A DNA stretch of 64,000 nucleotides from Pandoraea pneumonica (GTDB lineage Bacteria; Pseudomonadota; Gammaproteobacteria; Burkholderiales; Burkholderiaceae): the NCBI RefSeq assembly GCF_902459645.1, contig NZ_CABPSK010000004.1, forward strand, positions 124,001-188,000, read 5' to 3'. The stretch's first letter is position 1, and the number at the start of each line of letters is the position of its first letter. Under the pieces are notes generated by a model. It worked only from the letters and a program-made list of their open reading frames with translations, ran no database searches and was not told the origin of the DNA. Positions 3,764-61,516 of this stretch are shown piece by piece. Both the position numbers and the translations under genes were made by a program.

Positions 3764-5608
3764 GTGTATCGCTTGTCTCGCCTCTTCATTTGCCTGACGT
3801 TGGCCACACTCGGCCTCCTATCGCTCACTCCCATCACGCCCGTCAGTTCCGCTTTCGCGGCACCCGCCTTGGCGACTCCGGGCAGCGCATTGCCGAATCA
3901 GGAAGCCATGACCCGGCAGGTCGACGACGCCTCGCTCGCCAAGTATCGCGAGATCGTCGCCTCGCTCGGCGCATCGGCACGCGCGCGCCCTAGAGACTCG
4001 GCCCTTGCGGTGGCGCGCTGCCAGTTCATCCAGAACTACGCATGGTCGGAGGACTCGCATTGGACCGAGCAAGCGCAGGCCGACCTGAAGGCCTGTCGCC
4101 AGGACTTGAAAGACAAATTCGGCGACGCGCCGAAGGTCGCGCTTTATCTGCTGCAAGGCGTGTACGGCAAAGTGGCTGTCGAGCAGGGCACGGCACTGCT
4201 GCCTAAGGCCGAGCAGTGGCCGCCACAAGATCGTGCGCAACTGCACGCGGCGCTCGCTAACGCCTACGAAGGCATTCAGGACAAGTACAGCGCAGGCATG
4301 CAGGCCGTCGAAGCCGCCAAGCTGTCGCCGGACACCCCTGTGTTGCTGACCGCCGTGCGGCACCTCGCCTCGACAGGCGACAAGGCGCAGGCCAAGCGTC
4401 TGCTGATGGACGCGCCAGTACCGAAGGTGGCGTGGGCCGCTAGCGGACGTATCAACACGGCCCACGACGTGCTGCCGGGCACGACCGCCCGCGATCTGCT
4501 GGTTCGCATGCAGCAAGCGGGCATCAGCGTCGATCCCTACACGAGCGCGCGCGCCTACCTCCAGGCCGGTGACGTCGCCAGCGCCCAGCGTGCACTGTCC
4601 GAACCCAAACCCGGTGCCCCCGAGACGGCGCAACTTCGTGCGCTGCGCATCTCGGTAGGCCTCGCAGCCCGCGACGGCAAAGCGGCCGCATCGGCCATGC
4701 AGTCCTCGCTCCAACGCGATACCAATAACCGCTGGCCGCTCGCGCAGTCGTATGCCGTGCTGCTGTCGATCGATCCGGTGGCCGGGCTGAATCCGGCCTT
4801 CGCGCCGCTGCTGCTCACGCTGATTACCATCGCGCTCGCCATCGTGTTGATACCAGGCGTGCTGATGTTCCCCGCCCACTATGTCGGCACCGTGCGGGCG
4901 CGCAAAGGCCGTCCGCTCGCTGCAATCTTCGAGGGCATCGGCCTGCGTCATGCCTGGTACGCACTGGCGGTGTTCTGCCTAGTCTCATGGGCGGTGACCT
5001 CGCTTGTTGCCGGGCAGTTCATGCAAACGCGCACGGGTGTCGACGTGCCGCGCGTGCAGCCGAATCTCGCCATCGCCCACTTCTTCACGCTTGGCATCGT
5101 CATGCTCGCGCTGGCTCGCACCGTATGGCGCTTCGGTTGGCGGCAGTGGCTGGGCACGGGGCCATGGAAGGTCCGGTGGTTCATTTGGCCAGCCGTGTTG
5201 CTCACGCTCGCCCTGCTTAGCGCGTGGATCAGGGCACGCCACACGCTACCGACGGCACCCTCGCCGCTATTGACTGAGGTCGTCGTGCGCGGCGCTCACC
5301 AGTTGGGCGGCATCGGGCTGGCGTTGCTGCTCATCGCGGTGGCCGTGCCCATCGTCGAAGAGTTCGTCTTTCGCGGATGCCTGCTCGGCGGCCTAAGCCG
5401 CCACATGAGCTTTGCTGCGGCCAACATTTGGCAAGCGTTGATTTTCGCGTCCGTGCACTTCGACGCCACGCATTTCGCTTTCTTTGTCCTGTTCGGCCTC
5501 ACAACCGGGTGGCTCGCGAAGAAAACGCACGGCCTGGGCGCGTCCATTGCGATGCACGCCATCAACAACACGATATTCGTCATGCTGACGCTCTCGCGAG
5601 TGTCGTGA
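3764..5608 (+). CDS. CPBP-family intramembrane metalloprotease with long N-terminal helical-repeat domain
   Basis: A 614-residue membrane protein. It begins with a signal-anchor-like segment (residues 5-35), followed by about 300 residues rich in Ala and helix-forming sequence that look like TPR-type repeats. Several membrane spans follow. The C-terminal CPBP (Rce1-like, formerly Abi) domain carries EEFVFR (E532/E533/R537), a second motif with FASVHF (H565) and HAINN (H598/N602). These are the glutamate, histidine and asparagine residues expected for the metal-dependent glutamic protease fold. Most CPBP proteins are 200-300 residues, so the large N-terminal extension is unusual. It may bind a partner or substrate at the membrane. 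Function and substrate are unknown. No operon partner is evident; the next gene starts about 75 bases downstream. Confidence 0.82.
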   Translation: MYRLSRLFICLTLATLGLLSLTPITPVSSAFAAPALATPGSALPNQEAMTRQVDDASLAKYREIVASLGASARARPRDSALAVARCQFIQNYAWSEDSHWTEQAQADLKACRQDLKDKFGDAPKVALYLLQGVYGKVAVEQGTALLPKAEQWPPQDRAQLHAALANAYEGIQDKYSAGMQAVEAAKLSPDTPVLLTAVRHLASTGDKAQAKRLLMDAPVPKVAWAASGRINTAHDVLPGTTARDLLVRMQQAGISVDPYTSARAYLQAGDVASAQRALSEPKPGAPETAQLRALRISVGLAARDGKAAASAMQSSLQRDTNNRWPLAQSYAVLLSIDPVAGLNPAFAPLLLTLITIALAIVLIPGVLMFPAHYVGTVRARKGRPLAAIFEGIGLRHAWYALAVFCLVSWAVTSLVAGQFMQTRTGVDVPRVQPNLAIAHFFTLGIVMLALARTVWRFGWRQWLGTGPWKVRWFIWPAVLLTLALLSAWIRARHTLPTAPSPLLTEVVVRGAHQLGGIGLALLLIAVAVPIVEEFVFRGCLLGGLSRHMSFAAANIWQALIFASVHFDATHFAFFVLFGLTTGWLAKKTHGLGASIAMHAINNTIFVMLTLSRVS

Positions 5609-5683
5609 ACGCACCGCGGGCGGCAGCGTGGGCGATAATCTGGGCACTTGCCGCCCGCCCGGGCCGCCGTCCGGATATCGCTC

Positions 5684-6355
5684 ATGAACGCCAAGCTTTT
5701 CCCGCATCTGGTCCGCTTCCATCCACGGTTGCTCATCGCCATCGTCATCGGCGTGCTTGCCGGGTTGTTCGTGCAAATCTTCGTGAAGGGTGAATTCAGC
5801 ACCATCACCCGAATCCTCATCGGCTGGAACGCCGGTGCATGGTCGTATCTGGCGATGATCTGGTGGATGATGGTCACCGCGCCGAAGCGCAGCATCGAGC
5901 GCTTTGCCGAGCAGGAAGATCAGAGCGCCGCCGTCGTGCTCACGGTGGTGAGTCTGTCGGCCATTGCAAGCGTGGCCGCCATCATCCACATCCTTGCGAG
6001 TGCCAAAGCCGGGGCCTCGCATCACGCGTCCGAACACGTGATCTTTGCCGCCACCACGCTAATCGGGGGGTGGTTTCTCGTGCCGACCATCTACACGCTG
6101 CACTACGCGCGTCTGTATTTCACCGATACCGAATCGCCCTACGCGCTGGTGTGGCCCGACCGGGACTGCGACCCCGACTATTGGGACTTCCTGTATTTCT
6201 CGTTCACCATCGCCGTGGCCTCGCAAACGGCCGACGTCGGCCTCTCGTCGCGCCGCATGCGCCGTGCCACGCTCGCCCAAGCCATCCTCTCGTTCTTCTT
6301 CAATTTGGCTGTGCTGGGCCTGTCGATCAATATCGGCGCGAGCCTGCTGAGCTAA
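5684..6355 (+). CDS. DUF1345 membrane protein
   Basis: A 223-residue integral membrane protein with about five to six hydrophobic spans. The C-terminal block PDYWDFLYFSFTIAVASQTA resembles the conserved part of DUF1345 proteins, including the tyrosine/aspartate-rich YWDFLYFSFTI signature. No biochemical role is established for the family; the fold suggests a channel- or transporter-like protein in the inner membrane. The ATG at 5684 was chosen over an upstream TTG because the membrane protein starts there (MNAKLFPHL). It follows the CPBP protease on the same strand with 75 bases between, so co-transcription is possible. Confidence 0.75.
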   Translation: MNAKLFPHLVRFHPRLLIAIVIGVLAGLFVQIFVKGEFSTITRILIGWNAGAWSYLAMIWWMMVTAPKRSIERFAEQEDQSAAVVLTVVSLSAIASVAAIIHILASAKAGASHHASEHVIFAATTLIGGWFLVPTIYTLHYARLYFTDTESPYALVWPDRDCDPDYWDFLYFSFTIAVASQTADVGLSSRRMRRATLAQAILSFFFNLAVLGLSINIGASLLS

Positions 6356-50460: not shown

Positions 50461-52842
50461 ATGAGCCAAACCCCTTCCCCCACATCGGCCACTTCACAGG
50501 CTTCGCAAACTTCGCCTGCGAGCGGCGGTTGCCCGTTCCACCAAGCATCGGCGACGGCCACTTTGGCCCCGAACGGCTGCCCCGTCAGCGCGCGTGCCGC
50601 CGATTTCGATCCGTTCGAGGACGGCTACCAGCAAGACCCTCCGGAGTACGTGCGGTGGGCGCGCGAGCAGGAACCCGTGTTCTATAGCCCGAAGCTCGGC
50701 TATTGGGTCGTCACCCGCTACGACGATATCAAGGCGATCTTCCGCGACAACCTGACGTTCAGCCCGTCGATCGCGCTCGAAAAAATCACCCCGACCGGCC
50801 CCGAAGCCAACGCTGTGCTGGCTTCGTACGGTTTCGCGCTTAACCGCACCCTCGTGAACGAAGACGAGCCTGCGCATATGCCGCGTCGTCGCGTGCTGAT
50901 GGAGCCGTTCACGCCCGAGCATCTGAAGCACCACGAGCCGCTCGTGCGCGAATTGGCGCGCGAGTATGTCGATCGCTTTATCAACGATGGCCGCGCCGAC
51001 CTCGTCGACCAAATGCTGTGGGAAGTGCCGCTCACCGTCGCCCTGCACTTCCTCGGCGTGCCCGAAGAAGACATGGACAAGCTGCGCGAGTATTCCATCG
51101 CGCACACCGTCAACACGTGGGGGCGTCCGAAGCCTGAAGAGCAAGTCGCCGTGGCGCACGCCGTGGGCAACTTCTGGCAACTCGCGGGCAAGATTCTCGA
51201 CAAGATGCGCCAGCAGCCGGACGGCCCGGGCTGGATGCAATACGGCATTCGCAAGCAGAAAGATCACCCGGAAGTCGTCACCGATTCGTACCTGCATTCG
51301 ATGATGATGGCGGGCATCGTCGCCGCGCACGAGACCACGGCGAACGCCACCGCCAACGCGATGAAGTTGCTGTTGCAGCACCCGGACGTCTGGCGCGAGA
51401 TCTGCGAAGACCCGTCGCTGATTCCGAATGCGGTCGAAGAATGCCTGCGTCACAACGGCTCGGTGGCCGCATGGCGTCGTCTGGCAACGAAGGACGTGAC
51501 CATTGGCGGCATCGACATTGCGGCAGGCTCGAAGCTGTTGATCGTGACCTCGTCCGCCAATCACGACGAAGCGCACTTCGCCGACGCCGATCTGTTCGAC
51601 ATTCGCCGCGAAAACGCCAGCGATCAGTTGACCTTCGGCTACGGCTCGCATCAGTGCATGGGCAAGAACCTCGCGCGCATGGAGATGCAAATCTTCCTCG
51701 AAGAATTCACGCGCCGCCTGCCGCATATGAAGTTGGCCGAGCAGCAGTTCTCGTACGTGCCGAATACGTCGTTCCGTGGCCCCGAACATGTGTGGGTCGA
51801 GTGGGACCCCGCGATGAACCCGGAGCGTGCCGATCCGTCGGTGCTGACGAACCATTCGCCGGTGCGCATTGGCGAGCCGTCGGGCCATAGCGTGACGCGC
51901 CCTGTTGTCGTCGAGTCGATTACGCCGGTTGCCGAAGGCATCGTGAAGCTGCGTCTGGTCGCGCCCGATGGCCGCGCCCTGCCGCGCTGGGCACCGGGTT
52001 CGCACATCGACATCGAGTGCGGCGACACAGGCTTGTCGCGCCAATACTCGTTGTGTGGCGACCCGGCGGACAGCGGCGCGTTGGAAATTGCCGTGTTGCA
52101 CGAGCCTGAGGGCCGTGGTGGTTCGCACTGGGTGCATACCCAACTGAAAACCGGCGAACGTCTGCGCATTCGCGGCCCGCGCAACCACTTCCGTCTAGAC
52201 GAAACCACGCCGCGTGCCATCTTCGTGGCTGGCGGTATCGGCGTGACGCCCGTGGCCGCGATGGCGCGCCGCGCCAAGGCGCTGGGCATCGATTACGAAA
52301 TTCACTACAGCGGCCGCAGCCGCCGCACGATGGCGCTCGTCGACGAGCTTCAGGCGCTGCACGGCGAACGTCTGCATCTGTGGGTGAAGGACGAAGGCCA
52401 GCGCGCCGATTACGCGCAACTGCTCGCCACCCCGCGCGCCGACACGCAGGTGTATGCGTGCGGTCCGGTTCGTATGCTCGACGGTCTGGCCGAGTGCTGC
52501 GCGCATTGGCCGGAAGACACGCTGCGCGTCGAACATTTCCAGTCGCAACTGGGCACGCTCGATCCTGAGAAAGAGCATGCGTTCGAAGTGACGTTGAAGG
52601 ACTCGGGCATTACGGTGATGGTGCCCGCCGATCAGACGCTGCTCACCGCCCTGCGCGCCGCGAATATCGACGTGCAGAGCGATTGCGAAGAAGGCCTGTG
52701 CGGTTCGTGCGAAGTGCAGGTGCTGGAAGGCGACGTCGATCACCGCGACGTGGTGCTCACCCGTACCGAGCGCGACGCCAACACGAAGATGATGTCGTGC
52801 TGCTCGCGTGCCTGCGGGAAAAAGCTGGTACTGGCGTTGTAA
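50461..52842 (+). CDS. Self-sufficient cytochrome P450-phthalate-dioxygenase-reductase fusion (CYP116B-like)
   Basis: A 793-residue fusion. Residues about 35-440 form a P450 domain with a helix-I segment GIVAAHETTANATANA (E291-T292), the ExxR in EECLR (about 326) and haem ligand C399 in FGYGSHQCMGKNLA. Residues about 480-700 form an FMN/NADH reductase (RQYSL flavin motif, VAGGIGVTPVAAM nucleotide motif). Residues about 710-793 are a plant-type [2Fe-2S] ferredoxin with C742, C747 and C750 (CEEGLCGSCEVQVLEGD) and a fourth Cys in MMSCCSRA. It should hydroxylate a substrate with NAD(P)H and O2 without partner proteins; the substrate is unknown. The IclR gene is divergent. Confidence 0.96.
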   Translation: MSQTPSPTSATSQASQTSPASGGCPFHQASATATLAPNGCPVSARAADFDPFEDGYQQDPPEYVRWAREQEPVFYSPKLGYWVVTRYDDIKAIFRDNLTFSPSIALEKITPTGPEANAVLASYGFALNRTLVNEDEPAHMPRRRVLMEPFTPEHLKHHEPLVRELAREYVDRFINDGRADLVDQMLWEVPLTVALHFLGVPEEDMDKLREYSIAHTVNTWGRPKPEEQVAVAHAVGNFWQLAGKILDKMRQQPDGPGWMQYGIRKQKDHPEVVTDSYLHSMMMAGIVAAHETTANATANAMKLLLQHPDVWREICEDPSLIPNAVEECLRHNGSVAAWRRLATKDVTIGGIDIAAGSKLLIVTSSANHDEAHFADADLFDIRRENASDQLTFGYGSHQCMGKNLARMEMQIFLEEFTRRLPHMKLAEQQFSYVPNTSFRGPEHVWVEWDPAMNPERADPSVLTNHSPVRIGEPSGHSVTRPVVVESITPVAEGIVKLRLVAPDGRALPRWAPGSHIDIECGDTGLSRQYSLCGDPADSGALEIAVLHEPEGRGGSHWVHTQLKTGERLRIRGPRNHFRLDETTPRAIFVAGGIGVTPVAAMARRAKALGIDYEIHYSGRSRRTMALVDELQALHGERLHLWVKDEGQRADYAQLLATPRADTQVYACGPVRMLDGLAECCAHWPEDTLRVEHFQSQLGTLDPEKEHAFEVTLKDSGITVMVPADQTLLTALRAANIDVQSDCEEGLCGSCEVQVLEGDVDHRDVVLTRTERDANTKMMSCCSRACGKKLVLAL

Positions 52843-52904
52843 TTGAAAACACGCTGGCATCACGCACATCCGCGCGGTGCCAGCAGAAGCCCACGGAACA
52901 GGGC

Positions 52905-54404
52905 TTATTGAACAACCACTTCACTCGACGCCTTCGTTTGGAGGACAAATCGAATTTTTGCAAGATCTAAATCGGCCTCGGTGCGAATGTTCGCCCGGCG
53001 CGCATCGATCCAGTCAGCTTCGCTTTTCAGAAGCTCCAACATGTTCCCAACACCCTGTGTGTAACGGACTTTGGCAGCATCAGCAGCCATTTTGGCAATG
53101 GTTAGAATTTTTGCCGTGTGCTGGAGCTTCTTCCTTTGCTTCTGGAGGTCTTCCTGAACGCTCCAAATTGCCAGCTCGGCGTCTCGTTCTGCTATTTCCA
53201 GTTCGCTCTTCTTCTGTTCTAACTGCGCCGTTAACGTGTCCACATTACTGCGCTGCCGAAATCCATCGAAAAGAGGAATCCGAACTTGGATTCCGACAGA
53301 CCAACCCGTCACGTCCTGCGCGACGCTAGATTCGTTCGGTGGAGTCGCCGTCCGGTATTGGCCAGCAGAAATGGAAATTGTCGGAAGCCCGTCCCGTTTT
53401 GCAGCCACGATTCGCGCTTCCGCCCCTACGACCTGTTCTCTAAGTGCATTCACCCTAGGGTTGAGCGCGAGTCCAACGCGAAATAGGTCTTCCTGAGACG
53501 GCACTTCGTCAGGCAAAGCAAGGTCTGTTCGACGGCCCTCGATCAGAAACGTCGAATCGGCCCCGCTACCGATGGCGGCTGCCAATGTTGCGTTCGCGGT
53601 TCGAGACTCGCTATCAGCGTCAATCCGGTGCAAAACTGCCTGCTCATATGCGCTCTCGGCTAGAAGGCGATCAGAAAGCGTTCCTACACCTTGGCGAAGC
53701 AGCGCGACAGCAGTCGCCAGATTGGCCTGTGCGGAACGCTCAGCGTCCTGCGCGGCCCTGCTTGCGGCCATTGCAGCCCTGGCCTTGAAGAACGCTGAGG
53801 CGATTGATTCCGCCATCTCACGCACGACGGCTCGCTCCTCCCACACTGAGGCATTGAGCATGTGGGAAGCGCTTTCGAGATTCGCCTCGCGAACTCCGAA
53901 ATCGTAGAGCAACCACGAGATGGTCGCGTCATACCCTCCCGTGCGCCCACGCAATCCATAGTTTGCCGCCGAGTACCCAGGGTAGCTGACTGACTTTCCG
54001 AATCGGCTCGCGTTGACGTTTAGCGATACCGTAGGGAGGTAGGCTCCGATTGCCTTCCTACGACCAGCAGCCTGTTCGGCCACTATCCCCGCAGCTTTGG
54101 CTAGCTTCGGGTTCACACAGACGGCTGCATTTAGAGCCGTGACATAGTCAAGGGGCGCACTCAAGTCGATTTCCGAACAGGTCGGCGTGCCAGGTACTCG
54201 AAGTTCAATGGTCGGTGGAGGCTGATCGCTCAAAAACTGAGCGCACGCAAGCCCAGGAAGCAGGGTCAAAGCGATCAGCATTCTTCTGAATTTCAGGAAC
54301 ACGTCGGGGCTAGGTAGTCGAATGATCAAATCGCGTTTATGCGTTGCCATTGAAGCCCCGCTACCGAATGTGCATGAGAGTGCTGGAGTCATTCTTTCGT
54401 ACAT
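52905..54404 (-). CDS. TolC-family outer-membrane channel of peptide exporter
   Basis: An outer-membrane factor (499 residues). An N-terminal export signal is visible around MLIALTLLPGLACAQ (residues 42-56), so a later start (Met19 or Met42) is possible; the ATG at 54404 has a weak AAGAAAGAG before it. Two helical halves follow with ALNAAVCVNPKLAKAAGIVA, GGYDATISWLLYDFGVREAN and GWSVGIQVRIPLFDGFRQRS, typical of type-I-secretion channels. It is last in the minus-strand cassette and lies 27 bases after the C39 ABC transporter gene. With HlyD and the ABC protein it makes a complete type I secretion apparatus. Confidence 0.92.
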   Translation of the reverse strand: MYERMTPALSCTFGSGASMATHKRDLIIRLPSPDVFLKFRRMLIALTLLPGLACAQFLSDQPPPTIELRVPGTPTCSEIDLSAPLDYVTALNAAVCVNPKLAKAAGIVAEQAAGRRKAIGAYLPTVSLNVNASRFGKSVSYPGYSAANYGLRGRTGGYDATISWLLYDFGVREANLESASHMLNASVWEERAVVREMAESIASAFFKARAAMAASRAAQDAERSAQANLATAVALLRQGVGTLSDRLLAESAYEQAVLHRIDADSESRTANATLAAAIGSGADSTFLIEGRRTDLALPDEVPSQEDLFRVGLALNPRVNALREQVVGAEARIVAAKRDGLPTISISAGQYRTATPPNESSVAQDVTGWSVGIQVRIPLFDGFRQRSNVDTLTAQLEQKKSELEIAERDAELAIWSVQEDLQKQRKKLQHTAKILTIAKMAADAAKVRYTQGVGNMLELLKSEADWIDARRANIRTEADLDLAKIRFVLQTKASSEVVVQ

Positions 54405-54431
54405 GCTCTTTCTTCCGACCGAATAGCCGAT

Positions 54432-56612
54432 TTATGAAAGATCACCAGGGAACTCGGTCGGGCAGCCCTGCCACGCCACTTTCCCACGAGAGAGCAACAC
54501 AACACGGTCGGCGGCGAGAATTGTTTCGGGGCGATGAGCAACTGTGATGCGAGTGATGTTCATCGTGCGGATGTTGTTCAGCACTTCTCTCTCTTTCTCG
54601 ATATTCAAATGGCAGGTTGCCTCATCGAGAATGAGTATCGATGGACGCTTGTACAACGCACGCGCTAGTAGAACGCGCTGCTTCTGGCCTCCGGATAACA
54701 CATTGCCCATGTCACCGACCAAGGTGTTGTAAGCCATGGGCATCGCCATGATTTCGAAATGAACGCCAGAGGCGATGGCGCAAGCGATCATGTGATCATT
54801 GTCGACCTGGTGCCCGAAGAAGTTGATGTTGTCCGCAATAGAACCCGAAAACAGAGCGTCGTCCTGCAGCACAGTCGCAATTTCCTGCCGGAACGCGTGT
54901 ACGCCAATTTCCGTCAAGTCCACACCGTCAATCAAAACTCTCCCTCGCGTCGGCTTCAGCACTCCGAGCAGAACATTCAGTAGCGTTGTCTTCCCACATC
55001 CTGTCGGACCTGCGAGGACAATTGACTCGCCTGAGCTCACATGGAGGTCAATGCCGTCGAGAATTGTCGGTTCACCATGTGCGTATCTGTATTGCACAGC
55101 ATCAAATGTGATTTCCCCTGTCAACTTGCGACGAAACTCCTCGCCCCGCTCCACGGACTCCTCGACCGGGTGAAGCACGATGTCAGCCAAACGCTCGCCT
55201 TGAAGCTGTAACATCCTCACCGCATAAAAGTTGTCGATGAGCCCGCCTACGCGGGAATTGAACTGCCCCTTGAATGCGTTAAATGCCATGAGCATTCCTA
55301 TTGAAAATTGCCCCGACATCACCAATTTAGCGCCGAAGAAGATGATTAGAAGCCCTTCAATGCCAAAGAGAACCCCGTTTATTTGTTGATACATCAGTTG
55401 CATTTTCTGCGACCGCAGACCCGCGTTAACCTGTGCAACCAGGAGGGCCATCCAAGAGGCACGTCGCTCGTCCTGTTTCTGGAACAGCTGCAATGCCTTG
55501 ACGCCACGGACCGTCTCGAGAAAATGACTCTGTGTTCTTGCTGAACGAACGATGACATCCTGTGATGCCAGGCGAAAGGACTGGTACGTAACCGCACGGC
55601 CTGCGCCATACAGTGCCATGGTACCGATCGCAAGCATGGCTAGCGCAGGGCTATATACGAGCATCATCGCGAGAGTCACGATGGTCACGATACCGTCCAG
55701 CACTGCAGCGAGAAACGATGACGTCAGCGTTTGTTGAATCGAGTCGACGGTGCCAAATCGGGACACGATGTCGCCGACGTGTCGCTTCTCGAAAAATTGA
55801 ATCGGCAAGCGAATCAAATGGTTAAACACATTCGATTTCCACTGGATTCCAAGCGTGGTGCTGAGATGCATGAGATTCCACGCTCGTATCGCGCTGACGC
55901 CTTGTTGAACGATCAGCATCGCTCCAAAGGCAAGTAGCAGCGTAACGAGAAGGTCGTGGTCGGCAGTCACGAGTACGTTATCGACGACCCACTGGAGAAA
56001 GAGCGGGCTAGCTATCGACAGCGCCTCCAAGGTTAGCGCGAGGCACAGTATCCTCCCCAGAGATCGTTTCAATCCCGTTACTCGCCCCAGCAACTGGCGG
56101 AGCTTGAGCTGCGGTGGAGGTGTATTGCCTTCAAAATCCAGCGATGGCCAGAGTTCCAACACCACTCCCGTGAACATGTCGGAGAACTCAGAGGCCGAGA
56201 CAGTCCGAACACCTTGTGCTGGATCGTGAATCTTGAATCCCGACCTGCCGATCTCGTAAAGCACGACAAAGTGATTGAATGACCAATGGACAATGCAAGG
56301 AAGCTTTACGTTAGGTAGCTCTTCGATTTCCGCGCGAACGGCACGAGACATCAACTCCATTCGATCTGAAATTTTGATGAGTTGCGACAGCGACGCTCCC
56401 TTCAGGGAAATGGGAAACGCTTGTCTGAGCAGCCGTAAATCAACGTGCAATCCGTGATAGCTCGCTATCATTGCCATACAGGCCAATCCGCACTCTGTCG
56501 CCTCCGTCTGATAAATCATCGGCAAACGATGCCGAAATCCTGTTGCAATGTTTTGATGGCTTTGCATTTGAGTCGAGAAAGTCCATTGCGACCAATATTC
56601 AAAAGAACACAT
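54432..56612 (-). CDS. C39-peptidase-containing ABC exporter (bacteriocin/RiPP type)
   Basis: A 726-residue processing exporter. The N-terminal C39 peptidase has the catalytic Cys41 (QTEATECGLACMAMIASYHG), His (HWSFNHFVVL, H114) and Asp (HDPA, D130), so it should be active. Six transmembrane helices follow (about 170-440), then the ATPase with Walker A GPTGCGKTTLLN (about 537), signature LSGGQKQRVLLARAL and Walker B ILILDEATCHLN. Such enzymes cut the leader after a double-glycine-type site and export the peptide. Its substrate is presumably the 110-residue peptide encoded at 58417-58749. The start codon is uncertain (Met1 or Met16). Confidence 0.95.
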   Translation of the reverse strand: MCSFEYWSQWTFSTQMQSHQNIATGFRHRLPMIYQTEATECGLACMAMIASYHGLHVDLRLLRQAFPISLKGASLSQLIKISDRMELMSRAVRAEIEELPNVKLPCIVHWSFNHFVVLYEIGRSGFKIHDPAQGVRTVSASEFSDMFTGVVLELWPSLDFEGNTPPPQLKLRQLLGRVTGLKRSLGRILCLALTLEALSIASPLFLQWVVDNVLVTADHDLLVTLLLAFGAMLIVQQGVSAIRAWNLMHLSTTLGIQWKSNVFNHLIRLPIQFFEKRHVGDIVSRFGTVDSIQQTLTSSFLAAVLDGIVTIVTLAMMLVYSPALAMLAIGTMALYGAGRAVTYQSFRLASQDVIVRSARTQSHFLETVRGVKALQLFQKQDERRASWMALLVAQVNAGLRSQKMQLMYQQINGVLFGIEGLLIIFFGAKLVMSGQFSIGMLMAFNAFKGQFNSRVGGLIDNFYAVRMLQLQGERLADIVLHPVEESVERGEEFRRKLTGEITFDAVQYRYAHGEPTILDGIDLHVSSGESIVLAGPTGCGKTTLLNVLLGVLKPTRGRVLIDGVDLTEIGVHAFRQEIATVLQDDALFSGSIADNINFFGHQVDNDHMIACAIASGVHFEIMAMPMAYNTLVGDMGNVLSGGQKQRVLLARALYKRPSILILDEATCHLNIEKEREVLNNIRTMNITRITVAHRPETILAADRVVLLSRGKVAWQGCPTEFPGDLS

Positions 56613-56643
56613 TGGCGTGTTGCTGGTGCCCGAGCTGGATTTG

Positions 56644-57936
56644 TCAGAACGTTCCGCGAAGGCTTAGGACGGGTTCAAGAATCCACTCGTAAATCCGGCG
56701 AGTGTCTTGAAGGAGGTCTACGTCCACCGTCATACCGCTGCGCAGCGGCATAGCGCGTCCGTAGGCGGTAACCTGATCAATCTTTGGCGCAACCACGATC
56801 CTGTAGTAGAGTTCCGCCCCTTTCGTCGGGTCTAATCCAGGCACTCCTCCAGAAATTGCTGCCAGTTCCTGGGGTGTCATCGGTGTTTGTGCAACGGAGA
56901 TCACCTTGCCATCGTATTTCCCGAATTTTTGATACGGATAGGCGTGATAGCGCAAAAGCACATCGTCTCCCGGTTTTACAAAGCCGATGGTCCGACTTGT
57001 CGCGTAGAGATCGACAAGCATCCTCGCCCCATCGGGAAGAAGCCCCAAAACGGGGCGACTCGGGTCAACAATTTGGCCCAACTCGGTGAGCACGGATGTG
57101 ATCGTCCCGGCGGCTGCCGCGGAAACCACTAGTCGACGCTTGGATTCACTTTCGGCGTACTCCTGAGACGAGGTACTTTTGAGTCGCTCCAATTGAGCAA
57201 TCTGGCTTTCGTATTTGATGGGCAGCTTGCGCAGATCATTCTCTGCACTCCGTATCTCTTGCTCTACTGAACTGCGCTGGCGTTGAAGCTCGACTCGACG
57301 TGATCGGTGCTCGAGATGTTCCTCCTCTTTCTGCTGACGCTGGTCTTCAGAAACGTACCCATCCTTCGACAATTCGCGGTAACGGCTCGCAGCATTCTTC
57401 GATAGTTTCACTCGACTTTCCTGCACCGAGATTTGCGCGTCAAAAGTAGCCGCCTGGGATCGAAGTGCACGAAGCTTCACCGCCAACGCAGACGCTTCCT
57501 CGGCCTGCATTCGTCGGGCACTTTCCAACTCACTATCGAGCGATGCCTTCCGGTATGAAATTTGTTTGCTAATCTCAATTTGCGTACCGCCAATTGCCAC
57601 GCTGTCACGCTCGCTCGATAGGACATACAGGATGCTCCCTGCCTGGACGTGCTGCCCCTCTGTAACGTGCTTCTCGACAACGATGCCCGCTTGGGCCGGA
57701 TAAACGCGCAGAATGCCTAAGCTCGGCGTGACCTGCCCGGAAACCGTCACACGTCTTGTGTAGGAACAAAACACGACGATTCCAGCGATCAAGACGAACA
57801 CAGCGAACGCAAAAGCGGAGATCAGCGAACTGGAGACTGGGGAGGTCAGTAAAACACTGCCCTGATAAGAATCTCGACGAGCGTTCAACGCTTCCTGCCG
57901 AAATAACTTCGACTTCACGGGATCAACATAGCTCAT
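56644..57936 (-). CDS. HlyD-family membrane fusion protein of peptide exporter
   Basis: The periplasmic adaptor (430 residues). One N-terminal membrane anchor (residues about 34-58, LISAFAFAVFVLIAGIVVFC) precedes a lipoyl half-motif (GILRVYPAQAGIVVEKHVTE). A long coiled-coil hairpin of Gln/Glu/Arg-rich sequence (about 105-255) and the second half (GTITSVLTELGQIVDPSRPV) follow. It would connect the C39 ABC transporter to the TolC-type channel. The ATG at 57936 (MSYVDPVKSK) was chosen; an ATG ten codons upstream is also possible. It follows the small membrane protein gene in the same operon. Confidence 0.9.
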   Translation of the reverse strand: MSYVDPVKSKLFRQEALNARRDSYQGSVLLTSPVSSSLISAFAFAVFVLIAGIVVFCSYTRRVTVSGQVTPSLGILRVYPAQAGIVVEKHVTEGQHVQAGSILYVLSSERDSVAIGGTQIEISKQISYRKASLDSELESARRMQAEEASALAVKLRALRSQAATFDAQISVQESRVKLSKNAASRYRELSKDGYVSEDQRQQKEEEHLEHRSRRVELQRQRSSVEQEIRSAENDLRKLPIKYESQIAQLERLKSTSSQEYAESESKRRLVVSAAAAGTITSVLTELGQIVDPSRPVLGLLPDGARMLVDLYATSRTIGFVKPGDDVLLRYHAYPYQKFGKYDGKVISVAQTPMTPQELAAISGGVPGLDPTKGAELYYRIVVAPKIDQVTAYGRAMPLRSGMTVDVDLLQDTRRIYEWILEPVLSLRGTF

Positions 57937-58005
57937 TGTCGTAAGGTGCCCCTTCCACCACTGCACCTCGGCTTGATGGAAGGGGCATCGTCATGCTCAC
58001 ACTTA

Positions 58006-58389
58006 CTATGTCCGGAATTCCGGCTGCTTGGCAGACTGCTGACATTCCCTAGCCCAAATGACTTCATCTACTCCGCACATGGCGGCAAAGATTGCGGTAG
58101 CGGTTAGCTTTTCGTTTCCTAGAAATAGAAAAAGTATCGCGCCGAACGTGCCGATACAGACGATCAGAAATCCAAATCGCTCCGCCTTGATTCCAAAAAT
58201 CGAGCTTGACCGAAATTGCTTCCCAAACAACCATGGACCAGCAAAAATCCAAAACAATGAGCTCGGAAAGTAGTATAGAAATGCCGAAAAAAAAGCAGAA
58301 AATAAGAATTTACTTCCCGAAAATAAAAAACCAGCATTGATCATCAAAACAGCAAAGTACCACGCCGCCCTAGTTCGATATTTTTCCAT
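58006..58389 (-). CDS. Small membrane protein, candidate immunity protein
   Basis: A 127-residue, very Phe-rich protein (AWYFAVLMINAGFLFSGSKF onward). Three or four hydrophobic segments span about residues 9-55, 70-92 and 95-107, with a short hydrophilic C-terminus (WARECQQSAKQPEFRT). I find no family. Ribosome site GGAGA lies six bases before the ATG at 58389. It starts 27 bases after the precursor peptide gene and precedes the exporter genes, the place where bacteriocin immunity genes often sit. That role is inference from position and topology only. Confidence 0.65.
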   Translation of the reverse strand: MEKYRTRAAWYFAVLMINAGFLFSGSKFLFSAFFSAFLYYFPSSLFWIFAGPWLFGKQFRSSSIFGIKAERFGFLIVCIGTFGAILFLFLGNEKLTATAIFAAMCGVDEVIWARECQQSAKQPEFRT

Positions 58390-58416
58390 AAAAATTCTCC
58401 GCTTACCCTCACTCTA

Positions 58417-58749
58417 TCAACCATCCCCGTCGTCGTTAGTTTGTGGGGTGTCGATATTATCTACTACCATCTTGCACCCCCATGAGACCAATCTTTGCGT
58501 CAACGCACCAACAGCTAAGTTCCGGGAAAGAATACCTGCAGTAATACCGAATCCACTCCCAATAAGAAAGCAAGTCAAATAGGTTCCACTATTCCAGGAA
58601 TAACCTCCAAAACCAGGAACATTGATATTAATTGTTGTCGATGAATTACCCTCCAGCTTCGTAGTTACGGTTGACCCGACAGGCAACGTATAGACAATCG
58701 TCTCAGCCCCGGATACAGAAGAAATTTCATCAGAAGTTAATGGGCGCAT
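58417..58749 (-). CDS. Precursor peptide with double-glycine-type leader
   Basis: A 110-residue peptide. The N-terminus MRPLTSDEISSVSGA matches the LxxxEIxxVxGG leader pattern recognised by C39 exporters, with GA at the expected cleavage point after residue 15. The mature part (about 95 residues) has a Ser/Thr/Asn-rich stretch (residues 26-43), a Gly/hydrophobic region (FGGYSWNSGTYLTCFLIGSG, then FGITAGILSRNLAVGALTQR) and an Asp-rich tail. Two cysteines (60 and 92) could form a disulphide. A strong AGGAG ribosome site precedes the ATG. Located between the JmjC oxygenase and exporter genes, it is the probable substrate of both. Confidence 0.82.
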   Translation of the reverse strand: MRPLTSDEISSVSGAETIVYTLPVGSTVTTKLEGNSSTTININVPGFGGYSWNSGTYLTCFLIGSGFGITAGILSRNLAVGALTQRLVSWGCKMVVDNIDTPQTNDDGDG

Positions 58750-58782
58750 ACCGCTCCTCGTTACTTACCAATCCACAAATTT

Positions 58783-59685
58783 TCACTTACGATCAATCAC
58801 CCTATCAAATTCAATTTTCTTGTATTCATTATTTAGACTTGACATCTCACAAAGAAATAATTCTTGATTCTCCTTCCTCTTTAATTCTTGACAAATTCTT
58901 TCTGCGATATCGATCATTCCACGCGAATCCTCCGAAAATGGGTAGAACGATCGCCTGGCCAACTCCATAGCAGGAAGAATCTGATTGGCTATCCACGCGA
59001 CATAGTCGGTGACTTTGGCGGTGTGTAGTCCAACGGCGATATGGAACGTCTCCTGGGCATCGATTGGCGTTGCCTCATGCCACCATCCTCTAGGGATATA
59101 CAACGCGTCGCCTTGTTCCAAAACAAGCTCAATACTTGGCTCTTCGGGACACTCATCCTTCCTGTACTTACTTTTCTGATGATCAAGTGGGTACGGAAGT
59201 GTTGGAGGGAATACTTTCCATGCCTTGCGCCCTATCATTTGTACAGCAATAACGTCGTGCGTATCCCAATGCCGACCAAAGGTCCCTTTGCCACCGAACG
59301 CGGCGTAAGCGTTCGCAACTGTCTTGACGTTCAAATAATCCGATACCTCGTGGCATATGGATGCAATAGTTGCATCTTTCAAATCCATCCGATTGATGAG
59401 AAGCGTCGCCCCATCTTTCAGCAATGATTCGACGCGACTTGTTGAAATCCTCACCTTAACGTCATATATATCCTGATATTTTTCTGTGTATTGATAAACT
59501 CCGAGTACACCATTCATGTGCATCTTGATATCAAAATCACCGGTCAAATTTACGCCATAAATGGTCTCACTCAAATCACTCCACGAGTAAACATCAGACG
59601 GCACGATCCGAGACAAATGGAGCGGAATTTTCTCGAAGTAGTTCGAGTAAAAATCATCTTTTGAAATACTGAATTTAATTTTCAT
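58783..59685 (-). CDS. JmjC-type Fe(II)/2-oxoglutarate oxygenase
   Basis: A 300-residue JmjC/cupin-fold protein of the bacterial ribosomal-oxygenase-like group (YcfD/RoxA type). The Fe ligands fit H139 and D141 (GTFGRHWDTHDV) and H203 (YIPRGWWHEATP). The surrounding QMIGRKAWKVFPP and LEQGDALYIPRG match the family beta-helix strands. Such enzymes hydroxylate Arg, His, Asn or Asp side chains of proteins with O2 and 2-oxoglutarate. Its gene ends 33 bases before the precursor peptide, so hydroxylation of that peptide is the natural hypothesis. Start is ATG 59685 or the adjacent GTG; a run of eight G residues lies directly upstream. Composition is AT-richer than the flanks. Confidence 0.82.
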   Translation of the reverse strand: MKIKFSISKDDFYSNYFEKIPLHLSRIVPSDVYSWSDLSETIYGVNLTGDFDIKMHMNGVLGVYQYTEKYQDIYDVKVRISTSRVESLLKDGATLLINRMDLKDATIASICHEVSDYLNVKTVANAYAAFGGKGTFGRHWDTHDVIAVQMIGRKAWKVFPPTLPYPLDHQKSKYRKDECPEEPSIELVLEQGDALYIPRGWWHEATPIDAQETFHIAVGLHTAKVTDYVAWIANQILPAMELARRSFYPFSEDSRGMIDIAERICQELKRKENQELFLCEMSSLNNEYKKIEFDRVIDRK

Positions 59686-59851
59686 CACCCCCCCCGAATA
59701 TCGACGGAATTCATATTAATCAACGCAAACAGCTGAAAAACATCTACACGATCTCGCCGCGTATGGCTCGCTCAATTTACTTCATTGCTGCAGCCATTGA
59801 TATGCGAAAATTCTTAGATTATTTCTTTGCCTTTCGAATCACCGAGAGAGT

Positions 59852-59879
59852 GAAATTCCCGTGTTTTGAGGGGAATTTC
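59852..59879. repeat. 9-bp inverted repeat upstream of the JmjC gene
   Basis: Arms GAAATTCCC and GGGAATTTC enclose GTGTTTTGAG. It lies about 170 bases upstream of the cassette's first gene, so it may be an operator. There is no T-run that would make it a terminator. Confidence 0.55.
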
Positions 59880-60145
59880 GAATGGAACCTCGACTTCAAT
59901 CGATGACAATGGCCGACAAACTTTTGACCTCGTGCAAGTGGGATACGCATCTAACGTCCATGCTCGACGCCTGTGCGTTTGTGGTTTCCGTATAGTCGGG
60001 CGCAATGCTTCGGCGGGACTTCCATGAAGTGCTGTTTTCCCAAAACCCTATTAGCTCAATCCGGATTCTCGCGGGCGGGAGGGGCTGCGTTACGAGCAGC
60101 GGCCCATTTCGGGGCGAGGGGGAACTAGTTCTATCGCCCTAATGC

Positions 60146-60172
60146 AAAAAGCCCACAACCATGGTTGTGGGC
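60146..60172 (-). terminator. Intrinsic terminator of the Bcr/CflA gene
   Basis: A 22-base perfect palindrome (GCCCACAACCATGGTTGTGG plus GC) is followed on the minus strand by five T residues. It lies 121 bases past the stop of the MFS gene. Confidence 0.8.
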
Positions 60173-60292
60173 TCTATCAATCTTCCGCTCTGTGTGAAAC
60201 ACAGACGAAAGAAACCGAGTCTTCATTCTCGACTTCATTTTCCGGACCGGACGCAAGCAATTCGCTAATCGGCGGCCTCCTACCCACCGTAT

Positions 60293-61516
60293 CTAGGTCG
60301 ATGAATAATTTCCCTTCTTCACCGGCAACATCGTCAACATCGACACCAGCGCCAGCAGCGCGAATCCGCACATGACGGTGGCGAGCGGCCTCGGCGAGCC
60401 GTCGTTGAGCACGCCGAGCAGCGCGCCCGCCGCAAAGCCGAAGCCGTATTGCACGCTGCCGACCAGCGCCGCCGCCGCACCCGCACGGGTCGGGTGATTC
60501 GCCATCGCACCCGCCACCGAATTCGCAGTGATGATGCCGCGCAGCGACATGAACAGGAACAGCAGCGCCACCATCAACGGCAGAATGGCGATGCCCAGCC
60601 AAGCGGTTGCAAACAGCACGGACGTCACCACAGCGCAGCCGATGATGCCGATGCGCATCAGTCGATAAGACCCGATCTGCCCGACGCGACGCGAGTTGAA
60701 CATCGTCATCGACGCCATGCCGACGATGTTGATCCCGAACAACACGCCGAAGAACTGCGGCGACACATGGAAGTACTCCATGTACACAAGCGGCGTGCCT
60801 GTGATGTAGGTGAACGACGCGCCGAACACCGCCCCACCCGCGACCATATAGCCGACGAAATGCTTGTCGCGCAGCAAGTGCCAATACGACATCACGATGG
60901 CACGCGGGCCGCCCACCGTGCGCGCGTGCACCGCGCCCGTCTCCGGCAGACGCCACAACGCCAGCATGGCCACCACACCGAACGCCGCGAGAATGCCGAA
61001 GATCACCCGCCACGTCGTGAAGCGCAGCAACTGACCACCGAGCAGCGGCGCGACGATCGGGGCCACGCTCATCACCAGCAACATGATCGAGAACGCCCGC
61101 GCACTGTTACGCGCCCCATAGACATCGCGCACGATCGCTTGCGCAATCACCGGCATGGCACACCCGCCGAGCGCCTGCACGAAGCGCCACATCATCATGT
61201 GATCGATGGTGTCCGAGAACGCGCACCCCACGCTGCCGAAAATATAGAGCGCAATACCGGCCGCCATCGGCCAGCGCCGCCCGAAACGGTCCGCCAGCGG
61301 GCCCCACAACAGTTGTCCGAACGCGAACCCTAGAAAGAAGTACGACAGCGTGAGCTGCGCCGCCGATGCACTCGCTCCCAACTCGTGGCGCATCGTCACC
61401 AGCCCCGGCAAATACATGTCCGTGGACGCCGGCGCAATCATCATGAACAGGCCAAGAATGCCCAGCAATACACGCTCGGTCGGCAAGGCGGGAGAGAGTT
61501 CGGACGTCTGTGTCAT
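60293..61516 (-). CDS. Bcr/CflA-family multidrug efflux MFS transporter
   Basis: A 12-helix drug:H+ antiporter (407 residues). It has the family start LLGILGLFMMIAPASTDMYL and motif GQLLWGPLADRFGRRWPM. MWRFVQALGGCAMPVIAQAI with ARAFSIMLLVMSVAPIVAPL are typical of Bcr/CflA exporters of chloramphenicol, sulphonamides or bicyclomycin. Its actual substrate is unknown. It is monocistronic with its own terminator. Confidence 0.93.
   Translation of the reverse strand: MTQTSELSPALPTERVLLGILGLFMMIAPASTDMYLPGLVTMRHELGASASAAQLTLSYFFLGFAFGQLLWGPLADRFGRRWPMAAGIALYIFGSVGCAFSDTIDHMMMWRFVQALGGCAMPVIAQAIVRDVYGARNSARAFSIMLLVMSVAPIVAPLLGGQLLRFTTWRVIFGILAAFGVVAMLALWRLPETGAVHARTVGGPRAIVMSYWHLLRDKHFVGYMVAGGAVFGASFTYITGTPLVYMEYFHVSPQFFGVLFGINIVGMASMTMFNSRRVGQIGSYRLMRIGIIGCAVVTSVLFATAWLGIAILPLMVALLFLFMSLRGIITANSVAGAMANHPTRAGAAAALVGSVQYGFGFAAGALLGVLNDGSPRPLATVMCGFALLALVSMLTMLPVKKGNYSST

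What the first reader, a model, noticed from the sequence alone, without database searches (positions are those of the whole stretch)
52905..59685. Candidate new RiPP/bacteriocin system: JmjC oxygenase, leader peptide, C39 ABC exporter, HlyD and TolC
Seen: six same-strand genes with short gaps, in order JmjC-fold oxygenase, a 110-residue peptide with leader MRPLTSDEISSVSGA, a Phe-rich membrane protein, HlyD adaptor, C39-peptidase ABC transporter with intact Cys/His/Asp, and TolC channel. Established: C39 exporters cut double-glycine leaders, and JmjC proteins hydroxylate side chains of proteins. Inference: the oxygenase hydroxylates the peptide before leader removal and type I export, the product being an antibacterial or signalling peptide. 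I do not know a characterised class II microcin-like cassette with a JmjC modifying enzyme.
Basis: partly seen in the sequence, partly recalled or inferred. Interest (0 to 1): 0.87.

Follow-up and report, generated by a model that had tools for sequence, protein, structure and literature searches.

The report
Microcin cassette with JmjC oxygenase
This mobile gene cassette appears to make and export a small antibacterial-type peptide together with an oxygenase that, judging from relatives in other bacteria, probably hydroxylates a short tail on the peptide, which could explain what a puzzling 'cupin' gene in two known microcin systems is for.

Summary
The six genes are real, intact and in one minus-strand run: JmjC oxygenase, double-glycine precursor, small membrane protein, HlyD, C39 exporter, TolC. 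They form a low-GC insertion and fit a class II (colicin V-type) microcin cassette. The JmjC is PF08007 with an intact HxD...H triad and is not RoxA. Related JmjCs lie near a C39 exporter in 46 of 80 loci kept (of 193). New here: a shared peptide tail. Leader peptides at JmjC+C39 loci have varied cores, but 38 of 63 end in [DE]GD or G-x-[NDS]-Y (0 of 24 at JmjC-free C39 loci). The frozen motif held in 6 of 7 further loci, all from genera already sampled. Tail type changes once on the JmjC tree, three times on each exporter tree; Acinetobacter exporters 87-89% identical carry JmjCs 32% identical and different tails. JmjC and tail thus look like enzyme and substrate. Published systems overlap: JmjC MctC is required for E. 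coli Mcc1229 activity, while cupin-like McaB of A. baumannii Mcc17978 alone gave protection. Hydroxylation, its site and any iron-binding role are inferred. Novelty: new variant of a known kind.

The parts
58783..59685 (-). JmjC_2 (PF08007) Fe(II)/2-oxoglutarate-type oxygenase, short form lacking the C-terminal domain of many relatives; proposed tail hydroxylase
   Evidence: H140, D142, H204 invariant in 29 of 29 rows; NO66, MINA, YcfD in the PDB; FIH with the profile only
58417..58749 (-). Precursor, 110 aa: 15-residue leader MRPLTSDEISSVSGA, then a 95-residue core with two Cys and tail NDDGDG
   Evidence: P. anhela 83%, Janthinobacterium 49%, Achromobacter 36%; leader Gly-Ala and both Cys invariant in 4 of 4
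58420..58437 (-). Tail NDDGDG of the precursor: DGD-type motif, proposed hydroxylation site
   Evidence: site inferred
58006..58389 (-). 127-aa Phe-rich membrane protein, candidate immunity protein
   Evidence: 67% in P. anhela, 32% in the Paraburkholderia MAG, each next to the precursor; one strong hydrophobic segment in a simple scan; function inferred
56644..57936 (-). HlyD-family periplasmic adaptor
54432..56612 (-). C39-peptidase ABC exporter; the conserved part begins near the internal ATG at 56567
52905..54404 (-). TolC-family outer membrane channel
52847..60321 (.). Inserted low-GC segment; the matching flanks (P450 side and MFS side) lie about 120-170 bp apart in two relatives and about 1.7 kb apart in two others

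Best explanation
A horizontally acquired, JmjC-dependent class II microcin cassette. The precursor is made with a double-glycine-type leader. The JmjC enzyme hydroxylates its short acidic C-terminal tail (NDDGDG; most simply on the beta-carbon of Asp, by analogy with its solved relatives, recalled). The C39 domain then removes the leader after Gly14-Ala15, and the ABC/HlyD/TolC channel exports the 95-residue peptide. The small membrane protein protects the producer. Shown: genes, homologies, triad, insertion, JmjC-tail association and co-inheritance. Shown by others in a relative: MctC is needed for Mcc1229 activity. Inferred: hydroxylation, its site and timing, antibacterial action, immunity.
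For: Intact gene set. C39 within the flank in 46 of 80 and HlyD in 47 of 80 JmjC loci, while 2 of 398 phylum genomes, the window's own included, have such a JmjC at E 1e-40 and 1 of 40 C39 loci had one (that one is the same record as L111). Tail motif in 38 of 63 leader peptides and 33 of 46 JmjC+C39 loci, against 0 of 24 leader peptides at 39 JmjC-free C39 loci. ORFs with a slightly different tail pattern: 51 of 3210 on the JmjC strand, 4 of 4087 opposite. Both counts are on the loci in which the motif was first seen. Frozen motif on new loci: 6 of 7 with C39, 9 of 12 peptides. One change of tail type on the JmjC tree (35 NY, 11 DGD rows); 3 on the C39 tree and 3 on the HlyD tree against 1 for JmjC on the same rows. 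Acinetobacter L043 and L033: C39 87%, HlyD 89%, JmjC 32% identical, tails of different type. Homologous cores carry different tails. MctC is PF08007; its in-frame deletion abolished the Stx2a-amplifying activity of Mcc1229 supernatants and was complemented (PMC8853679).
Against: McaB alone protected a locus-deleted A. baumannii strain (PMC10333792), which a pure maturation enzyme would not be expected to do. Six of 46 JmjC+C39 loci have no motif peptide even with a looser leader pattern, and 34 of 80 JmjC loci had no C39 in the flank held. The held-out loci come from genera already in the first set, and several of their peptides resemble ones seen before. Only 16 of the 39 JmjC-free control loci gave any leader peptide. 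The DGD branch that holds the window has modest support (SH-aLRT 82). MctA lacks the tail motif. In relatives of the window the JmjC lacks its middle (P. anhela) or the precursor has a stop (Paraburkholderia MAG). No structure could be predicted.
Confidence: 0.72

Rival explanations
1. The JmjC is an immunity enzyme: it hydroxylates a cellular target, or the incoming peptide, so that the producer is not harmed, much as RoxA/YcfD hydroxylates ribosomal protein L16. (Not exclusive with maturation.)
For: In A. baumannii mcaB alone on a plasmid protected the locus-deleted strain (PMC10333792). The nearest solved proteins include ribosomal oxygenases.
Against: Tail type, a feature of the peptide, tracks the JmjC more closely than the exporter; a target-modifying enzyme need not do this, although one that inactivates an incoming tail could. 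In Mcc1229 the JmjC MctC is needed for activity and immunity is given by the mctDE region. The window has a separate candidate immunity gene.
Confidence: 0.17
2. JmjC and tail are linked only because whole cassettes are inherited together; the tail is a receptor-binding or export signal, and the JmjC does something else.
For: The DGD branch is only modestly supported. An acidic DGDG tail might bind metal without modification (inference).
Against: Exporters 87-89% identical carry different JmjC and tail types; homologous cores carry different tails; Acinetobacter holds both types.
Confidence: 0.1
3. The JmjC modifies the core or leader of the peptide, and the tail only docks the enzyme. (A variant of the best explanation, which shares the claim that the JmjC acts on the peptide.)
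For: The motif lies near the N-terminus of the core in three Moraxella peptides (L108, L109, L116), as a movable docking site might.
Against: Two or three motif copies in 31 of 39 NY peptides look more like several sites than one dock; by eye the cores share no residue.
Confidence: 0.15

Closest known systems
Mcc17978 locus mcaABCD, Acinetobacter baumannii ATCC 17978 (PMC10333792)
   Same: GA-leader microcin, cupin-like gene, HlyD, C39/SunT exporter; the A. baumannii plasmid pMC23.1 (L033) has this four-gene order with a PF08007 JmjC
   Different: Classed there as a class II microcin, modification left open, McaB read as immunity. pMC23.1 has an NY-type tail and a JmjC of the other clade, and no TolC is annotated beside it. 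The ATCC 17978 sequences themselves were not seen
Mcc1229 locus mctABC, Escherichia coli p0.1229_3 (PMC8853679)
   Same: Microcin operon with a PF08007 JmjC (MctC) that is required for activity; uptake through the catecholate siderophore receptor CirA
   Different: 232-aa precursor with a Cys-rich end and without double-glycine leader or tail motif; 530-aa exporter annotated without a peptidase (not scanned here); separate immunity region mctDE
MCB bacteriocin, Moraxella catarrhalis pLQ510 (PMC2761928)
   Same: HlyD (McbA), C39 (McbB), double-glycine peptide (McbC), immunity (McbI), with a JmjC-like gene upstream
   Different: McbC has no tail motif, and the JmjC there reads as two ORFs in different frames
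RiPP hydroxylases BipG and PbsQ of biphenomycin-type pathways (PMC12707348, PMC12257519)
   Same: JmjC/cupin-like enzymes that add oxygen to a ribosomal precursor (ornithine for BipG)
   Different: Other precursors and partner enzymes; Sg_BipB is an MFS transporter; no C39/HlyD/TolC set in the passages seen
Class IIb siderophore microcins (MccE492, MccH47; features recalled)
   Same: Modified C-terminal tail on a class II microcin; uptake through iron receptors, as reported for the two relatives above
   Different: Ser-rich tail carrying a glucosylated catecholate made by several enzymes; here an Asp-rich tail and one oxygenase

Membership tests
Class II microcin with colicin V-type export | Double-glycine-type leader on a small precursor | tested here: met
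   MRPLTSDEISSVSGA; in the whole window the leader pattern matches only this ORF and one ORF inside hlyD
Class II microcin with colicin V-type export | C39-peptidase ABC exporter with HlyD and TolC | tested here: met
   exporter aligned
Class II microcin with colicin V-type export | Immunity gene beside the precursor | tested here: inconclusive
   Conserved small membrane protein, no family match
Class II microcin with colicin V-type export | Antibacterial activity of the secreted peptide | not testable with these tools
   needs expression
JmjC_2 / ribosomal oxygenase family PF08007 | Match over the curated cut-off and HxD...H iron triad | tested here: met
   93 bits against 22; triad invariant in 29 of 29
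JmjC_2 / ribosomal oxygenase family PF08007 | Being the L16 arginine hydroxylase RoxA itself | tested here: not met
   The genome has a separate RoxA-type copy at 28% identity ('RoxA' by length and family, recalled). The JmjC loci branch apart from these on the tree, with weak support (79) and one short RoxA fragment misplaced
JmjC_2 / ribosomal oxygenase family PF08007 | Hydroxylase activity | not testable with these tools
   needs enzyme assay
NHLP bacteriocin/RiPP system | Exporter over the NHLM ABC cut-off | tested here: not met
   TIGR03796 503 bits against 853.3
Class IIb siderophore microcin | Ser-rich tail and siderophore-attaching genes | tested here: not met
   Tail NDDGDG; none of the six genes has such a family match
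mcaABCD-type cassette | Microcin, cupin-like JmjC, HlyD, C39 in one run of genes | tested here: met
   Same four parts, JmjC first instead of second, plus membrane protein and TolC

The most novel reading that the evidence does not exclude
One JmjC enzyme beta-hydroxylates the Asp (or Asn) residues of a short ribosomal tail, turning it into a built-in iron ligand like the beta-hydroxyaspartate of siderophores. The microcin then mimics a ferric siderophore and enters rivals through iron receptors without any siderophore being attached. This would be a new, widespread class of genetically encoded siderophore-mimic microcins in Proteobacteria.
Probability: 0.28. Interest if true: 0.9.

Novelty: new variant of a known kind. 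Interest (0 to 1): 0.76.

Why it matters
Class II microcins outside the siderophore-linked group are usually treated as unmodified (recalled). If a JmjC oxygenase hydroxylates a portable tail on them, microcin-like peptides in Pandoraea, Pseudomonas, Acinetobacter, Neisseria, Moraxella and other genera belong to a modified class that can be recognised by the tail. It would also explain the unexplained 'cupin' gene of Mcc1229 and possibly of Mcc17978. Both act through catecholate iron receptors (CirA; Fiu and PiuA), which makes a specific chemical idea directly testable by mass spectrometry.

Tried and rejected
Rejected: the JmjC as plain RoxA (separate copy in the genome). Less likely as driver of tail type: the exporter. 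Tried without result: a Fur box before the window cassette (best 11 of 19, reached by 49 of 60 shuffles; 18 other loci gave at most 14 of 19, best case 2 of 60 shuffles); repeats of 18 bases or more in 52700-60400; RNA families; the precursor in plasmids; a Pseudomonas JmjC probe in E. coli genomes. A first leader pattern was wrong by one residue and missed most peptides (corrected); a very loose one gave too many chance matches and its output was cut.

Limits of the counts. The 40 control C39 loci were picked by me from the top of the list by score and frame length, not at random; eight are shorter than 10 kb or cut by contig ends, and 16 of the 39 JmjC-free ones gave the 24 leader peptides. 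The leader pattern catches some chance ORFs in both sets. The tail pattern differs slightly from the one frozen from then on. Of 16 loci fetched for the held-out test, six were duplicates of earlier records and not counted; of the ten new ones three had no C39 and were not counted (L221 carries a motif peptide, L217 and L226 none). For the tail label (looser leader pattern) L049 was left out as mixed because an unrelated ORF matched; the gonococcal rows L034 and L118 rest on a frameshifted ORF, and L108, L109 and L116 on a motif inside the core. Fisher tests treat peptides as independent, which they are not, so I do not lean on them.

Full report
WHAT IS THERE. The six genes lie on the minus strand with short gaps. 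Pfam gives JmjC_2 PF08007, HlyD, Peptidase_C39 plus ABC, and OEP over their cut-offs; the precursor and the 127-aa membrane protein match no family over cut-off. GC is 0.44-0.54 in 54-60 kb against 0.60-0.66 on either side. In all four relatives examined the P450-side and MFS-side flanks match but the cassette does not; the flanks lie about 120-170 bp apart in two (G005, G011) and about 1.7 kb apart in two (G009, G010; the spacer was not examined). So the cassette is an insertion. The host genus is Pandoraea by inference: G024, of the same genus, has the contig length of Pandoraea anhela L039.

NEAREST RELATIVES. P. anhela keeps the precursor (83%), membrane protein (67%) and part of HlyD up to the contig end, with a JmjC missing its middle. 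G005 and G012 hold remnants. A Paraburkholderia MAG (G153 = L040) has an intact JmjC at 41%, a precursor with a stop and an altered leader, a 32% membrane protein, and no exporter in the 18 kb fetched. These four and the window are the 5 of 398 family genomes with a precursor match. Precursor homologues also occur in Janthinobacterium and Achromobacter and, without a clear leader or C39, in Pseudoduganella.

THE JMJC AND ITS COMPANY. A protein search of plasmids (128 records matched) led to bacteriocin-type loci in M. catarrhalis pLQ510 and A. baumannii pMC23.1 and to gonococcal DNA with HlyD, double-glycine peptides and C39. Other plasmid hits examined have no C39 annotated beside them: Streptomyces, A. 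lwoffii, Salmonella, E. coli. A scan of genome contigs with five JmjCs gave 193 relatives, 80 kept. Of the 80, 46 have a C39 domain and 47 a HlyD within the flank held. Such JmjCs are rare: 2 of 398 phylum genomes at E 1e-40, the window's own included. In a 97-row quick tree, 47 of 50 C39-linked JmjCs fall in two groups, one of 43 rows (SH-aLRT 99) and one of 16 rows with the window (82). Another branch of 18 JmjC loci (plus a short RoxA fragment of unsure place) has no C39; the neighbours of three of them were scanned and are genes such as an RND pump, a MauG/ASPIC protein, a glyoxalase or an RNB-domain protein. The tree has long branches and weak deep support.

THE TAIL. Leader peptides at these loci have varied cores but recurrent ends: [DE]GD near the end (Pandoraea NDDGDG, Acinetobacter SSEDGDG, Methylomonas GEDGDG), or copies of [D/A/S]-G-x-[N/D]-Y (Pseudomonas, Vreelandella, Neisseria, Moraxella, A. 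baumannii): 75 copies in 39 distinct peptides, two or three copies in 31. In three Moraxella peptides the motif is near the start of the core. ORFs with such ends: 51 of 3210 on the JmjC strand, 4 of 4087 on the other. With a fixed leader pattern, 38 of 63 peptides and 33 of 46 JmjC+C39 loci have the tail; at 39 JmjC-free C39 loci 0 of 24 peptides do. The motif had been read from those same JmjC loci, so a held-out test followed: ten new loci, seven with C39, six of the seven with the frozen motif, 9 of 12 peptides. The seventh is a Neisseria whose JmjC is 97% identical to the gonococcal one and whose peptide looks frameshifted. These new loci come from searches of the genera of an Acinetobacter, a Pseudomonas and a Neisseria already in the first set, and several peptides resemble earlier ones, so the test is not wholly independent. 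With a looser leader pattern 40 of 46 first-set loci have a motif peptide.

TAIL FOLLOWS JMJC. Tail type changes once on the JmjC tree (35 NY, 11 DGD rows). On matched rows it is 1 for JmjC, 3 for C39 and 3 for HlyD. In A. pittii L043 and A. baumannii plasmid L033 the C39 is 87% and HlyD 89% identical, the JmjC 32%, and the tails are EDGDG and NDYCEDGGNY. Homologous cores carry both tails (49% identity; 35%). The simplest reading is that the tail is the JmjC's substrate.

CHEMISTRY. The triad H140, D142, H204 (numbered from the GTG) is invariant in 29 of 29 rows. The nearest solved proteins are NO66, MINA, YcfD and, with the profile only, FIH. That these hydroxylate the beta-carbon of His, Arg or Asn, and that beta-hydroxyaspartate is a siderophore iron ligand, is recalled. 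Which residue is hit here is not known.

LITERATURE. PMC8853679 (passages, sections 7 and 13): in-frame deletion of mctC abolishes the Stx2a-amplifying activity of Mcc1229 supernatants and is complemented; the mctDE region gives immunity; receptor CirA; iron/Fur regulated; the authors only suggest that MctC may modify the peptide. The record p0.1229_3 has a JmjC protein at the deleted coordinates 5426-6319; the same protein accession in L036 matches PF08007 and the window profile. PMC10333792 (abstract, passages, sections 7, 10, 27 and part 2 of 19): mcaABCD, receptors Fiu and PiuA, induced by low iron, McaB alone protective, modification left open. PMC2761928 (passages) describes MCB; the word cupin does not occur in its held text. 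PMC11798529 (passages) describes a gonococcal peptide island with a C39 protein; cupin and JmjC do not occur in its held text. BipG and PbsQ are JmjC/cupin-like RiPP enzymes (passages). PMC12710340 says that the closest bacterial homologues of some eukaryotic PF08007 proteins lie in RiPP-like contexts (passage, outline and part of its references). Searches showed no paper that links a JmjC to class II microcin tails; the library lacks most subscription papers.

VERDICT. Export cassette: near certain. JmjC acting on the peptide, most likely its tail: about 0.72 (the rivals given overlap with each other and with this). Immunity by the JmjC: the strongest rival. Iron-ligand tail: bold, 0.28, and testable; no Fur box was found before this cassette.

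Noticed in passing
L032 (pLQ510) 39-1120: The JmjC upstream of the known M. catarrhalis bacteriocin genes reads as two ORFs in different frames, and McbC lacks the tail motif: loss of enzyme and tail may go together.
   Followed up: partly
L034 10183-10537; L118 9183-9537; L224: In gonococcal and near-identical Neisseria DNA the JmjC is intact but a tail-bearing peptide seems split over two frames, while another Neisseria (L228) has one intact; possibly phase variation or decay.
   Followed up: no
L028 10716-11042: Paraburkholderia MAG precursor with a stop at the Trp52 position and a degraded leader beside an intact JmjC, without exporter in the stretch fetched.
   Followed up: partly
L031 7280-9935 (G076): A distant JmjC (26-29% identity) about 1.3 kb downstream of a 60-aa ORF with a double-glycine-like LEAVAGG stretch (L005 3-185), with a P-loop ORF between them.
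   Followed up: no
window 58783-59685: PHROG 8014 (unknown function, virus protein set) matches the JmjC at 1.1e-33, so related JmjC proteins may occur in phages.
   Followed up: no
G000:C1:1550890-1551294 and G000:C2:339904-340257: Two further C39 domains in the window's own genome, in open frames of 274 and 729 aa.
   Followed up: no
C39-free JmjC branch, e.g. L056, L059, L061: Eighteen loci of Nevskia, Solimonas, Cellvibrionaceae and others carry a related JmjC without C39; neighbours were scanned in three only; role unknown.
   Followed up: partly
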